In this document: one piece after another, positions 6,201 to 13,896 of the stretch
Layout of the letters: every line of letters starts with the position of its first letter
How positions within the stretch are numbered: position 1 is the first letter of the stretch
Origin: Microcoleus sp. CAWBG506
GTDB taxonomy: Bacteria; Cyanobacteriota; Cyanobacteriia; Cyanobacteriales; Microcoleaceae
Direction: 5' to 3'
Length of the DNA stretch: 64,000 nt
Assembly: GCA_020883125.1 (NCBI GenBank)
Contig: JAHREW010000007.1
Span: 49,365-113,364, forward strand
Program-made: the position numbers and the translations under genes
The notes under the pieces: model-generated
Told to the model about the DNA's origin: nothing
Database searches by the model: none
The model's input: only the letters and a program-made list of their open reading frames with translations

Positions 6201-6544
6201 CGCTGCAACCATACTTTTTAGTTTACGTTCGAGAAAATAAGGAAGTGCGATTAACTTTTGCTCAACCCAAACAAATACTTGAAATATATCAGTTGCTGTG
6301 CGCGGGGCGTACTGTTCCCTATGAAGAGTTGTGCAACTTGTTCGATCGACAAACTAACAACGGATTTGATATGAGTTTATATAACGATTTGCTGAAGCGG
6401 GCGGTTGATTCAATTGCAGGTATTTACAACAAGCGGCTCATCGGCAACCTGCTGTCTAGCCGTAGTGCTGTGTTGGTTGAGCAAGCGCATCAGGTTAAAG
6501 CAACAACTGATTTTGAACTGATTACCTGGCTGGTGATTAAATGA
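3233..6544 (+). CDS. PLD-nuclease / SNF2-family helicase fusion protein
   Basis: The 1103-residue protein combines an N-terminal phospholipase-D-like domain (about residues 15-200; HGK with H126 and K128, then GSSNFT) with a two-lobed SNF2-type superfamily 2 helicase. Visible motifs are Walker A GLGKT (K281), DESH (366-369), motif III LLLSATPVNND, motif V ATDCISEGQNLQ and motif VI QRFGRCDRIGS (from 832). PLD-like nuclease domains joined to SNF2 helicases are known from restriction and defence loci, where the helicase moves DNA and the PLD domain may cut it. A ribosome-binding site AGGTAGG precedes the ATG. The stop codon overlaps the next start as ATGA, so the two products are translationally coupled and probably work together. 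Function as DNA defence is inference; the domain calls are secure. Confidence 0.88.
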   Translation: MSQHDSSLPKSAIRDNRHRGTVGDFLKAKVEENSTLSIVSAYFTIYAFDALKEQLLGIKSLKFLFGEPRFIKSLDPSKTDKKAFQIEDQGLQLQNRLQQKRVAKECAEWIEKKVQIRSVKQSNLLHGKMYHIAHNGSENAIMGSSNFTVRGLGLGTKYNNIELNLEVDSKRDTRDLKAWFDELWNDAELIEDVTQDVLLYLEQLYQNNSPEFIYYKTLFHIFETFLDDLEKSDILSEQLHLFDTEIWKSLFEFQKDGVKAAINKIRRYNGCIIADSVGLGKTFEALAVIKYFELRNEKVLVLCPKKLRENWTVYLAQNNSDLNPLVKDRFNYTVLSHTDLSRDSGYSGDINLATINWGNYDLVVIDESHNFRNNIKSKRDESGNPIRKSRYERLMDDIIKSGVKTKVLLLSATPVNNDLKDLRNQLYFITEGSDGAFRESLGIVSLRDTLADAQGKFTKWAKKSRDRKTSELLEELSSAFFKLLDELTIARSRKHIQKYYKDAIAQLGGFPERLKPISVFPEIDREGEFMSYEQLNSEISKYQLSLFNPSKYVLSPYRSVYENKTGRNFKQSDRERCLIGMMKVNFLKRLESSIHSFALTIERTITKIEYLETKIQKFQQLQQSRDANETVIFSDLMIEDFDDEELQDAMQVGQKLTFQMAHLNVETWLKDLKRDKEQLKKIYNSAQSISVERDAKLAQLKSLIAEKVKHPTTNKQGQPNRKVLVFTAFADTAVYLYEGLREWATLDLKINLALVTGGSAKNQTTFGKNEFNHVLTNFSPFAKKRAKIPSMRQDGEIDLLIATDCISEGQNLQDCDYLINYDIHWNPVRIIQRFGRCDRIGSPNHTVQLINFWPTEDLDQYINLKNRVEARMALADIAGTFEDNLLEVKEIQERIESDLKYRDKQLLRLKDEVLDLEDFTETVALTEFTLDDFRMELAKYIESNRKLLQDAPLGLYAVVPTNSEYPIIAPGVIFCLKQKGDCLDNKTVNPLQPYFLVYVRENKEVRLTFAQPKQILEIYQLLCAGRTVPYEELCNLFDRQTNNGFDMSLYNDLLKRAVDSIAGIYNKRLIGNLLSSRSAVLVEQAHQVKATTDFELITWLVIK

Positions 6545-12500: not shown

Positions 12501-13896
12501 CATCACTAACCCAGATATCCCTACTTTTGATGCGAAAATTAGTCCGCCTTACGTGATTACTTCTCGCCATGTAGAAGAAGCTTATCAAAGTCAAGACCTT
12601 CGCAATAATATTCGCGATCGCTTTAAGTTGACACTGGGACTAGATAAGCGCTACGAAGTAATTGCCTACTCAATTGCTCATGGTTCTCAGGAGAACGAAA
12701 CAGGCATGGAGGATGGATTTTATGTATCTTGGATTCGCGAACAAGTCTTGTATTGGTGGTCTGAGGGATTCGCGGGAAGGTCATCGGAAGATGAAATCCT
12801 TGCTTTACTAGAAGAAATGGTCGGATTAGGAGTTTTACGAGAAACCGATGCAGGTTGCTTCACTCTGAGAAGTTCTAATTTAGCCTTGCTTATGGGTACG
12901 CAGCCAGAAATTGAAGCAGAACTTCTGAGACCGCGTGAAGCTCCACCTGAATACGAACCTGCTACTTTTCGGTCTCCTCTGAGCGTGAAAAATAAAGCTG
13001 ATTCTCGGCGAAGTCCTTTAACTGTTCAACAGGAATCTCAACTTCAAATCCGTAATAACTGCGTCTCCATTCTATTTGGCTGTCAAGCCGCAGGACTTGA
13101 CGATTTGAGAGTTTTTATGGAAGCAGCCTTTAGTAATAAGGATTGCAAAATTCACTATTTAGAAAACCTTTCAGACCGCTCGGATTTCAGCCAGCGTTTG
13201 ACAGAAATTAGTAACCGCCGCAAGAAAGATACCACGACGATTGTTGTTGTGTCAGCCACCACCGATTGGACTAAGGATTGGGTTGATGAGGCAATTAAGA
13301 AAGTCAAAAAATTGAGGAAAGAAGACTCTTTTATGCAGCTTGTTTTTGTCGCAGATCCTCAGAAGGCTTGGCAGTTAGTTAATCATAATTCCACAGGTTT
13401 TGATTACTCTAAGGAACTGAGATATTTAAGTCTAAAACCTTGGCACGATGCCGCGCTGCGACATTGGTTGGAAGATGTTAATTTGCCCAGGGAACTAGAA
13501 GTTAGAAAGAAGATTACGGAAGTGACAGGAAATTGGTCAAACCTGCTGCAAGAATTCTATCAATTTTCCCAAGCCGATCCGCGCTGGCAAGATTCCTTGG
13601 CCCAACTGAAGAATCAATTTAATAAATCTGACAAATTAATTAATTCAATGGGTTTTGACGGTTGCGAACCTCAAAGAAAACTGGTCATGAGAACTTTGGC
13701 CCAATGGGGAGAAGCAGCGGTTGAGGAATTAATTGATCTTGTTGATGATGTATCGCCTGAAGTTGTCAAGCAGACTCTCAGATGGGCGGATATCCTCAGT
13801 CTGGTCTCGCATTTAGGAAATCAGAAGCAAGACGGTAAGGATTACTGGGAGATTGACTCTGTAGTTGGCTGTTTGCTCCAATCTATGGCAGATTAA
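6541..13896 (+). CDS. Giant protein: RM-like N-domain, sigma-70 factor, ATPase
   Basis: This 2451-residue protein is highly unusual. Residues 1-225 resemble the N-terminal module of large Eco57I-type methylases that accompany PLD-SNF2 helicases (LFWVLGYRSE, FLFQFT, SYLFFAIALR, NRRQHKR, FHEAWHKT; from memory). Residues 235-508 are a complete group 1/2-type sigma-70 factor: region 1.2 (VYLQEIGRIPML), region 2 (NLRLVVSIAKRYQNRGL, then STYATWWIRQGITRAI at 326-341), region 3, and region 4.2 helix-turn-helix (SLQEIGNIFDVTREWIRQIE). Residues 510-900 are acidic linker and helices, 900-1650 a long helical or coiled-coil scaffold, and 1765-2020 a STAND/AAA ATPase with Walker A GGRQLGKT (1779-1786) and Walker B LLLLDEAD (D1869). 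The end (about 2150-2450) has an alpha/beta segment and a possible winged helix. No methylase motif is seen. One frame is open over 7.3 kb, so this is not a misassembly of decayed genes. Confidence 0.85.
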   Translation: MSVSEQQAKASIDQALSSFTKGKLADNARNLFWVLGYRSEKISDLVPNSSENFIANFDIDQKLNSQKALLKEWLSVDFLFQFTGTEIADNDQFVEFNTSSNGESAFFTSYLFFAIALRRSAYTIEELDGIIREINELLRMPAIVLFQHGENLTLSIINRRQHKRNQSEDVLGKVKHIKDIPFASPTNSHLKMLFNIFVTELHENHGFSNFDEFHEAWHKTIPDNIKFKKDRIPSDSLRVYLQEIGRIPMLQAYEEIELARKIAELELEGCRKAKDKMVESNLRLVVSIAKRYQNRGLDFLDLIQEGNLGLIKAVEKFDCTKGYRLSTYATWWIRQGITRAICNYSRTIRLPVHLNQTISRINKITKRLSQQIGRKPTEEEIATKMEMTIAKLRFVIQSDRPIISLDTRIGEEEGSTLGELIEFDGETPEDQVSKNLLREDLESVLDTLGPRQRDVIRMRFGLDDGGEKSLQEIGNIFDVTREWIRQIEIKALNKLGDPNCNSILEDYIRPTAIDQTPTKRPIAQPMQPRHFNIPENLSRSGDTFLQEPVGDKIVDIANMIEPLVYFNNFRDKSNIEQETLAQTYLSSADESENNFNYANNEPNFHIAEQTENNLNGVIKPMEHNSADLLKQLTELEQIFSELEARLSEASRKLLDPGIPISQQLIQELDESHKNFIQLRDKVLEVAEYLAVSPILQAEEIGSLADIKSVLDRVDLAQKQKSAIALVRDSALRVLERILAIAHRVDSNFQSLLECQEKARELQRAISESQESDLHPDTQLLADGYHPFSKLLTLIAECEQADDERLDFLEDAVAESFGRYLARAAVRGKLIIQSEKIPDLPAVSTNNNLDETSLVDEPESETVLIVEQPPAAELKSVLKDEAIAQPTHEDIPYIQPTELPTATQIELPNSENKQGKEVENQGNKKREEKQPLYSSSPNDTAQQIAQSILDDPDIERPAVLRDLVWRLILEQKLSLAFHLARCFEKQYSNFAPHLPPQLIRAILLGQNLRYDIGSGQLANLLKDDFIGYSESYVLPDKSEWTQAASLLLAAAALRPSLLAPNTGAKHLLQDIQFGKAGLDKLYDYCQIIAKHGDGQRALDIKAIKKAKTLAALQKDLDDLYVKIEDWWSQAPQQDLIYGHAKKVWVEWLNPGELFYTLWLPIKQRDLSQLPFLKEKIERLSNESNLDSEIQRTERNIRRPKGAGIITGKALSQLRSRARQFLNLVGRWVKEQESRLAESENYLQKEAKQLKQDIENLQDTVLQELDSFEATKPPVFILAGIVCCRKAVEDIGNIFDPDTELPTAEPYPRHILHADLLRMPSLPINDDWEMDIANPEAGIDGILELVKNDIWDWQQAFDMQSYLCSSKAVGNHEATARIIEYLEHNPEPTLDLAQLKDDCNNRIQECRKVLQEQVETTSKQLESVVAFGLLRETDRTAYAAKIETIKNALETTRRFSEKIELLRAIGEAISAKRQEQIDRVSEQLNSLQQTGIADADRTRICSVLEQGDILTANEYIYMLQRGRSLPEPEEKRDAFKDFFVHKYAAIEKVLEECDRDRQKKQNLTIDIGKGKSIAKIQMPRGAQAKKAAEMLDAWFAVKGRSQITEKDANQILSNLGFNIKSVTVKRLGNYTWIDVNSEPISDQNRCPVSAYGSDAKGHYRILCVWDRPNEQDLLNAVGETALGGPVFAFHFGRMTEKRRRDLADLCRQRRSTFIVIDDVLMLYLCGEQKTRLPVLFDCTLPFTFLEPYNTAAGEVPPEMFYGRVGERESIINPLGSCLIYGGRQLGKTVLLKYVHRTFHANDAGRNALFLDIKEIGRKQLLDKIWHLLNEELDKLKVPDTNRRNSVSESSLQRIKIWLELDNQRRFLLLLDEADNFLEADGKEDFLRCDEFRKLMAETNRRFKVVFAGLHNVLRTTRQPNHPLAHFGKPICIGPLLNNGEMRAATALVERPLASLGYRFESPDLIPRILWQTNYYPSLIQLYCEQLLKHITNPDIPTFDAKISPPYVITSRHVEEAYQSQDLRNNIRDRFKLTLGLDKRYEVIAYSIAHGSQENETGMEDGFYVSWIREQVLYWWSEGFAGRSSEDEILALLEEMVGLGVLRETDAGCFTLRSSNLALLMGTQPEIEAELLRPREAPPEYEPATFRSPLSVKNKADSRRSPLTVQQESQLQIRNNCVSILFGCQAAGLDDLRVFMEAAFSNKDCKIHYLENLSDRSDFSQRLTEISNRRKKDTTTIVVVSATTDWTKDWVDEAIKKVKKLRKEDSFMQLVFVADPQKAWQLVNHNSTGFDYSKELRYLSLKPWHDAALRHWLEDVNLPRELEVRKKITEVTGNWSNLLQEFYQFSQADPRWQDSLAQLKNQFNKSDKLINSMGFDGCEPQRKLVMRTLAQWGEAAVEELIDLVDDVSPEVVKQTLRWADILSLVSHLGNQKQDGKDYWEIDSVVGCLLQSMAD

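What the first reader, a model, noticed from the sequence alone, without database searches (positions are those of the whole stretch)
6541..13896. A complete sigma-70 factor fused inside a 2451-residue ATPase protein
One open frame joins an N-terminal module of restriction-methylase type, sigma regions 1.2, 2, 3 and 4, a long helical scaffold and a STAND/AAA ATPase with Walker A at 1779-1786. Sigma factors are normally small separate proteins; I know of no described family with this layout. It suggests a signal-gated protein that binds core RNA polymerase or chosen promoters, perhaps turning transcription on or off when the ATPase is triggered by phage or DNA damage.
Basis: partly seen in the sequence, partly recalled or inferred. 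Interest (0 to 1): 0.94.

Follow-up and report, generated by a model that had tools for sequence, protein, structure and literature searches.

The report
Sigma factor built into restriction-like defence
In a cyanobacterium and many relatives, one giant protein joins a module shared with DNA methyltransferases, a complete sigma factor (the part that leads RNA polymerase to promoters) and an ATPase, beside a gene for a predicted nuclease-motor protein; it is likely an anti-phage system that would use promoter or polymerase recognition, in place of or beside DNA methylation, to aim the nuclease.

Summary
In detail: window 6541-13896 is one 2451-aa frame with an N-module, sigma-70 regions 1.2, 2, 3 and 4, a long linker and an AAA_22 ATPase. 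It is no assembly join: full-length relatives (46-86% identity) occur in many cyanobacterial genera. The gene overlaps, by ATGA, a gene for an HKD-nuclease/SNF2-motor protein, and its N-module is the N-terminus of Eco57I-type methyltransferases that sit beside related HKD-SNF2 genes. In Cyanobacteriota these operons carry N-module-methyltransferase, N-module-sigma, N-module-sigma-ATPase or (Planktothrix plasmid p4) methyltransferase and sigma together. N-module type and HKD-SNF2 type agree in all 33 typed loci (12 A/a, 21 B/b; some near-copies). Fused sigmas keep most core-polymerase and -35 contact residues; the sigma tree suggests at least two recruitments. I read it as a restriction-like system with a sigma factor as alternative or added targeting head. 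Targeting is inferred; rivals are a dedicated transcription switch and a decoy for phage takeover of polymerase. Sigma factors in defence have precedents (MzaA, Calp), but I found none tied to such a module, an HKD-SNF2 nuclease or such an ATPase.

The parts
3233..6544 (+). HKD (PLD-like) nuclease + SNF2 translocase, 1103 aa, type a; overlaps the next gene by ATGA
   Evidence: Pfam PLDc_2 94-184, SNF2-rel_dom 253-433, Helicase_C 718-841; PADLOC C3a139 HKD+Snf2 E 1e-131; GLGKT and DESH found by pattern, HGK...GSSN read by eye; best solved relative RapA, E 2e-8
6541..13896 (+). N-module - sigma-70 - linker - AAA_22 ATPase fusion, 2451 aa
6541..7215 (+). N-module type A (residues 1-225), shared with an Eco57I methyltransferase protein
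   Evidence: no Pfam family of its own
7243..7335 (+). sigma region 1.2 (residues 235-265)
   Evidence: Pfam 2.8e-10
7369..7563 (+). sigma region 2 (residues 277-341), with DLIQEG and YATWWIRQ
   Evidence: Pfam 3.4e-21
7609..7833 (+). sigma region 3 (residues 357-431)
   Evidence: Pfam 1.1e-19
7870..8025 (+). sigma region 4 (residues 444-495), with TREWIRQ (TRERIRQ in most relatives)
   Evidence: Pfam 9.4e-16
8071..10980 (+). linker and long scaffold (residues 511-1480); residues about 922-1492 are absent in the 1882-aa forms
   Evidence: no domain above cut-off
10981..13893 (+). AAA_22 ATPase region (residues 1481-2451); family found in many phyla
11875..11898 (+). Walker A GGRQLGKT (residues 1779-1786), invariant in alignments A1 and A2
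12133..12156 (+). Walker B LLLLDEAD (residues 1865-1872), nearly invariant

Best explanation
The locus is a two-gene, restriction-like operon in which a complete sigma-70 factor, carried on the same kind of N-terminal module as the DNA methyltransferases of related operons and fused to an AAA_22 ATPase, likely docks on the neighbouring HKD-SNF2 protein and would aim it at promoters or at RNA polymerase on foreign DNA. Shown by sequence: the fusion, its conservation, the shared module, the matching module and HKD-SNF2 types, and retention of most core-polymerase and -35 contact residues. Inferred: (1) the module binds the HKD-SNF2 protein; (2) the sigma part brings the pair to core polymerase or promoter DNA, filling the targeting role that the methyltransferase with its TaqI_C specificity domain has in sister operons; (3) the SNF2 motor loads there and the HKD domain cuts; (4) the ATPase gates this, so that the cell's own promoters are spared.
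For: Context: HKD-SNF2 overlaps the fusion by 4 nt and the pair is kept in the Microcoleus-genus loci read. Module: N-module + Eco57I methylase + TaqI_C near HKD-SNF2 in L178, L179, L181, L192 and others; N-module + sigma alone beside HKD-SNF2 in L180, L184-L187, L189-L191, L204, L205. In one sample of 386 genomes, 22 carry this HKD-SNF2 at E<=1e-60; partners: methyltransferase 12, N-sigma 4, N-sigma-ATPase 4, relics of both genes 1, ATPase remnant 1. Types: 12 of 12 A/a and 21 of 21 B/b, none mixed. On the ATPase tree A- and B-type fusions intermix, P0058 (A) being sister to P0068 (B), so the module was exchanged on one ATPase lineage. Both HKD types have all three partner kinds. Recurrence: N-sigmas of L204 and L205 branch with sigmas of their own small-genome group. 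Function kept: D403 and Q406 in 31 of 31 ATPase-fused or HKD-linked sigmas, E585 in 29 of 30, R584 and R588 in 28 of 30 (E. coli numbering recalled); pairwise dN/dS of the sigma part 0.34-0.51 among six Microcoleus-genus loci. Melting residue W433 is changed in 7 of 31 and in 0 of 26 of the comparison sets (rows not independent), which fits targeting better than routine initiation.
Against: Seven N-module-sigma loci show no HKD-SNF2 in the stretch held (L176, L177, L188, L194, L195, L208, L209; L176 and L209 lie on short contigs), and an Okeania fusion has none in its 17.8-kb stretch. Methyltransferase and sigma are both intact in Planktothrix p4, so sigma is not simply a substitute. In type B the N-modules of methyltransferases form one clade against those of sigmas (99/95): partner turnover is by whole genes, not repeated domain swaps. 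Within type B the distance correlation of N-module with HKD-SNF2 (0.59) is no stronger than with host SigA (0.75) in 9 genomes. Region 3.2 is eroded only in stand-alone forms (24% identity to SigA with HKD, 37% without HKD); ATPase-fused forms have 59%, more than group 2 (42%), so initiation by the window protein is not excluded. E407 of the core-binding motif is changed in 8 of 31. A nuclease aimed at sigma-70 promoters would endanger its host; how it would be restrained is not seen. No experiment and no structure model.
Confidence: 0.42

Rival explanations
1. Dedicated transcription switch: the N-module-sigma protein is a working sigma factor that turns on the defence operon or other genes when the module or the ATPase senses infection; the HKD-SNF2 nuclease acts on its own.
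For: All four sigma regions are present. Region 3.2 is intact in the window and better kept in ATPase-fused forms (59%) than in group-2 sigmas (42%); N-sigmas without HKD keep Y430, W433 and W434 in 7 of 7. Calp, a CRISPR-linked system giving a transcriptional response to infection, is a precedent (abstract of PMC12751052 in the listing). In type B, stand-alone N-sigma genes lie directly before HKD-SNF2 in most loci read.
Against: It does not explain why the N-module is shared with methyltransferases or why its type tracks the HKD-SNF2 type. Melting residues are changed in some fused and HKD-linked forms. Promoter-like sites in the operon are no more than chance: 17 against 19.7 expected.
Confidence: 0.27
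2. Guard or decoy: the sigma part mimics housekeeping sigma so that phage proteins which seize sigma or RNA polymerase bind it and trip the ATPase and nuclease.
For: The window's sigma part is 70% identical to its own genome's SigA (residues 255-515) and aligns to cyanobacterial SigA without gaps; a large ATPase is attached; core-facing D403 and Q406 are kept in 31 of 31.
Against: Fused sigmas do not stay close to their host's SigA: they form separate, longer branches. Stand-alone N-sigma + HKD pairs have no ATPase. No phage partner was looked for.
Confidence: 0.17
3. Housekeeping or DNA-repair complex at transcribing polymerase: a RapA-like SNF2 motor brought to RNA polymerase by a built-in sigma, not defence.
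For: RapA is the best solved relative of the SNF2 part (E 2e-8); several copies of the genus sit in a similar gene neighbourhood.
Against: HKD nuclease domain, best PADLOC match to candidate C3a139, patchy spread (22 of 386 genomes), plasmid copies, relic copies and Eco57I methyltransferases in sister operons all fit defence.
Confidence: 0.08

Closest known systems
C3a139 'HKD+Snf2' (PADLOC candidate defence gene)
   Same: The window's upstream gene matches the model over residues 27-1102, E 1e-131.
   Different: The model covers only the HKD-Snf2 protein, not a sigma factor or this ATPase. Its published description was not searched for by name.
Type-2 BREX-related (BR) systems (PMC12839542, passages read)
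   Same: HKD-endoDNase fused to a Swi2/Snf2 helicase as effector, with an N6-methyltransferase; sister operons here have these two.
   Different: The passages give DUF499 ATPase and DUF3780 as parts; neither was hit in the five window proteins scanned, and no methyltransferase was found among them. In the main text the words 'sigma factor' occur only for a sigma-HTH-like fold in BrxL and in the references.
MZA (MzaA sigma factor)
   Same: A sigma-70 factor as a named part of an anti-phage system (NCBIfam NF041931; PMC9523054, one passage).
   Different: Only the sigma part matches (model 442-716 of 726); 298 bits against a cut-off of 800. The rest of the MzaA model does not match the N-module or the ATPase.
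Calp (CRISPR-associated Lon protease; sigma release recalled)
   Same: Infection leads to a transcriptional response (abstract seen in the listing); that a sigma factor is released is recalled.
   Different: Signal and protease are unrelated; the sigma factor there is separate and freed, here it is fused (recalled, not tested).
Eco57I/TaqI_C methyltransferase + HKD-SNF2 operons of cyanobacteria
   Same: Same N-module, same HKD-SNF2 family.
   Different: Head domain is a DNA methyltransferase with a specificity domain instead of sigma-70.

Membership tests
Sigma-70 factor (RpoD/group 2) | Regions 1.2, 2, 3, 4 in order | tested here: met
   All above Pfam cut-offs; 253-aa gap-free match to SigA of 8h3v
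Sigma-70 factor (RpoD/group 2) | Curated family score for cyanobacterial RpoD | tested here: not met
   NF005643 457.5 against 500; TIGR02997 350 against 384.5
Sigma-70 factor (RpoD/group 2) | Binds core polymerase and starts transcription | not testable with these tools
   Most contact residues kept, no experiment
MZA system | MzaA over its whole length | tested here: not met
   298 bits against 800, sigma part only
MZA system | MzaB-E neighbours | tested here: not met
   PADLOC showed no MzaB-E hit to the fusion, the HKD-SNF2 gene (best 25 of its 45 families listed) or the WD40 gene; the other neighbours scanned with Pfam are beta-lactamase-like and NlpC/P60
Type-2 BREX-related system | HKD-Swi2/Snf2 helicase | tested here: met
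Type-2 BREX-related system | Adjacent N6-methyltransferase | tested here: not met
   No methylase among the five window proteins scanned; the N-module occurs once in the genome. Sister operons meet it
Type-2 BREX-related system | DUF499 ATPase and DUF3780 protein | tested here: not met
   No such hit listed at E 0.1 in five window proteins
C3a139 HKD+Snf2 | Match of the HKD-Snf2 protein to the model | tested here: met
   E 1e-131
STAND NTPase | STAND profile and domain order | tested here: inconclusive
   AAA_22 above cut-off, nSTAND6 and AAA_16 below; no structure model
Type II/ISP-like restriction-modification | Paired methyltransferase protecting self DNA | tested here: inconclusive
   None found in the operon; nine Eco57I domain matches elsewhere in the genome, none of them found by the N-module search

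The most novel reading that the evidence does not exclude
Transcription-guided restriction: a class of defence systems in which a sigma-70 factor replaces, or works beside, the methyltransferase as specificity head of an HKD-SNF2 nuclease, so that foreign DNA is recognised by its promoters or by the polymerase loaded on it; in this lineage an AAA_22 ATPase has been fused on as the safety gate.
Probability: 0.35. Interest if true: 0.94.

Novelty: new variant of a known kind. Interest (0 to 1): 0.8.

Why it matters
If right, a sigma factor, known as the aiming part of RNA polymerase, has been adopted, probably more than once, as part of a restriction-like nuclease system. That would make promoter or polymerase recognition a basis for telling foreign DNA apart, and would give a direct test of how transcription and anti-phage nucleases are coupled. 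It also gives neighbours and a place in a system to giant proteins that databases call simply 'sigma-70 family RNA polymerase sigma factor'.

Tried and rejected
I first took several Microcoleus ATPases as sigma-less relatives; the two checked are the same gene annotated from an internal start, so the claim was dropped for that genus. I first read the data as 'sigma replaces methyltransferase'; the intact operon with both on Planktothrix p4, the relics of a methyltransferase beside N-sigma in L187, L197 and L243 and the N-module tree changed this to 'alternative or added head, turned over by whole genes'. Gene conversion of the fused sigma with SigA was considered; the sigma tree does not show it. 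Mirror-tree support for docking within type B was looked for and not found beyond host kinship. A special promoter in the operon was not found. The weak match of the C-terminus to ThsB_TIR (E 0.02) was not followed. N-module searches on plasmids gave nothing for type A and 8 records for type B. The YprA-helicase paper (PMC12458937, parts 1 and 2 of 8 read) was read because some distant relatives of the ATPase follow a helicase: in L110 the gene fragment upstream has an MZB domain and others look like it by eye. I saw no mention of this ATPase in the parts read.

Literature searches on which 'not found in print' rests: all in the held open-access library only.
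Full report
WHAT IS THERE. Window 6541-13896 is one open frame of 2451 residues. Pfam finds sigma-70 regions 1.2 (235-265), 2 (277-341), 3 (357-431) and 4 (444-495) and an AAA_22 ATPase (1773-1909), all above their curated cut-offs. Walker A GGRQLGKT is at 1779-1786 and Walker B LLLLDEAD at 1865-1872; both are invariant or nearly so in the alignments. The sigma part aligns without gaps to the SigA of solved cyanobacterial polymerases, over 253 residues with 8h3v and 239 with 8gzg, and is 70% identical to its own genome's SigA. It is one of eleven places in its genome with a match to sigma region 2.

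IT IS CONSERVED. Of the 120 relatives listed (135 found), 68 carry Pfam sigma region 2, 58 of them at 2273-2512 aa, with source names such as Microcoleus, Oscillatoria, Phormidium, Scytonema, Brasilonema, Planktothrix, Tolypothrix, Nostoc, Okeania and Anabaena. Forms of 1882-1886 aa lack residues about 922-1492. Sigma-less ATPases do occur elsewhere. Four of five cyanobacterial loci read (L045, L072, L154, L155) have a homologous partner of about 380 aa right after the ATPase; L044 has none.

THE NEIGHBOUR. The gene at 3233-6544 encodes an HKD (PLD-like) nuclease domain plus a SNF2 motor. Its last bases overlap the fusion's start as ATGA. Its best PADLOC match is the candidate C3a139 'HKD+Snf2' (E 1e-131) and its best solved relative is RapA, the polymerase-associated SNF2 protein (E 2e-8). 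Motifs GLGKT and DESH were found by pattern; the HKD part, HGK...GSSN, was read by eye, because the stricter pattern gave no match. The pair is kept in the loci of the same genus read (L039-L042, L046; cut by contig ends in L050 and L051).

THE MODULE. Residues 1-225 have no Pfam family. A search of 195 genomes of the order with this module found 7 with a match: three fusions of the window's genus, one 1238-aa frame at 37% identity (G099), and three weak ones (E 3e-7 to 5e-7). The same search with the second, B-type module found 22 of 195. Four large frames scanned are all Eco57I methylases with a TaqI_C specificity domain. Others are N-module-sigma proteins of 410-758 aa, many directly beside HKD-SNF2. 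A protein search with a B-type module found 8 proteins in the 341-1085 aa range it covers, the query among them, all with sigma domains. A similar search from the L205 protein gave two, the query and one other, both with sigma domains.

PARTNERS OF HKD-SNF2. In a sample of 386 genomes of the phylum, 22 had an HKD-SNF2 match at E<=1e-60. Partners were read from fetched loci or, for G017, from the coordinates: methyltransferase 12, N-sigma 4, N-sigma-ATPase 4, relics of both genes 1 (G092), ATPase remnant only 1 (G335). Some methyltransferase genes are parted from HKD-SNF2 by small genes, and one (L206) is cut by the contig end. The N-sigma of G171 (L190) is shortened to 410 aa although its reading frame matches on beyond. 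Named plasmids add: Planktothrix agardhii p4 with N-methyltransferase, two small genes, N-sigma and HKD-SNF2, all intact; Brasilonema octagenarum pBOCT2 with N-sigma-ATPase + HKD-SNF2; Microcystis, two Nostoc and Calothrix plasmids with the methyltransferase form (one Nostoc gene is split by an IS); Nodularia pUHCC0039a with truncated N-methyltransferase and truncated N-sigma and no HKD-SNF2 in the stretch. Beside the N-sigma of L187 lie the start and end of an N-methyltransferase; L197 has such relics of both.

TYPES MATCH. N-modules and HKD-SNF2 proteins each fall into two kinds. Of 33 loci where both could be typed, 12 are A/a and 21 B/b, none mixed. They are not all independent: L052 and L056 are probably the contigs of L040 and G017, L244 is close to L054, and the window's genus makes up most of A/a. 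Dropped from this count were loci whose methyltransferase N-terminus matched neither kind (L199-L203, L206, L207, L252) and loci lacking a long HKD-SNF2 frame or an intact partner (L153, L182, L183, L197, L210, L211, L243 and the seven N-sigma loci without HKD). On the ATPase tree, A- and B-type fusions intermix (P0058 A next to P0068 B, 99) inside one clade of 26 rows, which also holds five sigma-less rows (quick tree). Thus module kind changed on one ATPase lineage; that HKD-SNF2 changed with it is known only where the neighbour was read. Within type B, N-module distances follow host SigA (rho 0.75) as well as HKD-SNF2 (rho 0.59) in 9 genomes, so this finer test says nothing for docking.

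HISTORY. On the HKD-SNF2 tree (35 rows; L153 was labelled sigma-ATPase, L187 sigma, L197 not counted) the partner needs 7 changes between sigma and methyltransferase; well-supported branches force at least 5 for the methyltransferase label (quick tree, long branches). In type B the N-modules of methyltransferases form one clade against those of sigmas (99/95), so partners turned over as whole genes; in type A a methyltransferase module lies among sigma modules (99). The direction, sigma first or methyltransferase first, is open. The sigma domains of L205 (a Gastranaerophilales record by name) and L204 (unnamed, same part of the phylum) branch with sigmas of those genomes, apart from 62 other rows (97), which suggests at least two recruitments (quick tree, long branches, the two inner joins only 86 and 92).

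IS THE SIGMA PART FUNCTIONAL? Contact residues (E. coli numbering recalled, not from a call) were counted in 18 ATPase-fused sigmas (nine known only as protein records, without neighbours) and 13 HKD-linked ones, of which P0123 and P0125 are protein records placed there by kinship and L204 gives two genes; P0130 was left out. D403 and Q406 are kept in 31 of 31; E407 in 23 of 31; E585 in 29 of 30; R584 and R588 in 28 of 30; Y430 in 27 of 31; W433 in 24 of 31. In 15 SigA, 4 group-2 and 7 N-sigmas without HKD, Y430, W433, R584, E585 and R588 are all kept. Identity to SigA in region 3.2 is 24% in HKD-linked forms, 37% in N-sigmas without HKD, 42% in group 2 and 59% in ATPase-fused forms, so erosion is not a mark of the window's own form. 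Pairwise dN/dS of the window's sigma part against five relatives is 0.34-0.45 (all 15 pairs 0.34-0.51), against means of 0.30 for the ATPase and 0.33 for the module; regions 2 and 4 alone are more relaxed (means 0.54 and 0.61). The window itself has W in place of R586. Reading: binding is under constraint, the full initiation cycle possibly less so in stand-alone forms.

MECHANISM. Shown: architecture, conservation, shared module, matched kinds, kept contact residues. Inferred: docking of the module on HKD-SNF2, sigma-led targeting, nuclease action, ATPase gating. I give the targeting model 0.42, a transcription switch 0.27, a guard/decoy 0.17, a non-defence polymerase complex 0.08.

WHAT IS KNOWN. 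MzaA is a sigma factor in the MZA anti-phage system; the window protein matches its model only in the sigma part. The Calp abstract seen reports a transcriptional response to infection. Type-2 BREX-related systems pair an HKD-SNF2 effector with an N6-methyltransferase (PMC12839542, passages), but their DUF499 and DUF3780 parts were not found here, and that paper speaks of sigma factors only for a fold in BrxL. In the held library I found no description of a sigma-70 factor tied to HKD-SNF2, to this module or to this ATPase; subscription journals are largely missing there.

Noticed in passing
L047:7863-11576, L049:8255-11449 (and L048:6316-8007): Other sigma fusions in the same family of genomes: WD40 repeats at the N-terminus and a SigA-like sigma at the C-terminus (1237 and 1064 aa; 563 aa without WD40 hit). 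On the sigma tree they are one clade inside SigA, separate from the N-module sigmas.
   Followed up: partly
window 894-3125: A 743-aa WD40-repeat protein directly upstream of the HKD-SNF2 gene in this genome; most relatives read have a 550-608 aa gene there instead.
   Followed up: no
L045:12388-13527, L072:11166-12305, L154:10966-12117, L155:11296-12459: True sigma-less cyanobacterial ATPases are followed by a conserved partner of about 380 aa (63-73% identical to the L072 one) without a Pfam hit above cut-off or PADLOC match in the two scanned.
   Followed up: partly
L113:1185-7238, L121:2-6514, L128:1383-6323, L110:1-1374, L100:3-5792, L101:3-5987: In other phyla the ATPase follows very large helicases (one fragment with an MZB domain) or proteins that look DEDD-DinG-RecQ-like by eye, so the ATPase may be a general part of several conflict systems.
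   Followed up: partly
L242:16656-17960: A 434-aa protein of unknown family lies between N-methyltransferase and N-sigma on Planktothrix p4; homologues in L196 (439 aa) and L192 (436 aa) beside methyltransferase operons.
   Followed up: partly
L204:1253-5157: A small-genome member of the phylum has two N-module-sigma genes in tandem (758 and 526 aa) beside one HKD-SNF2 gene.
   Followed up: partly
L246:7005-8472: On Microcystis plasmid p1 the slot between methyltransferase and HKD-SNF2 holds nucleotidyltransferase and SLATT genes; on a Deinococcus plasmid a DUF262 gene lies there.
   Followed up: no
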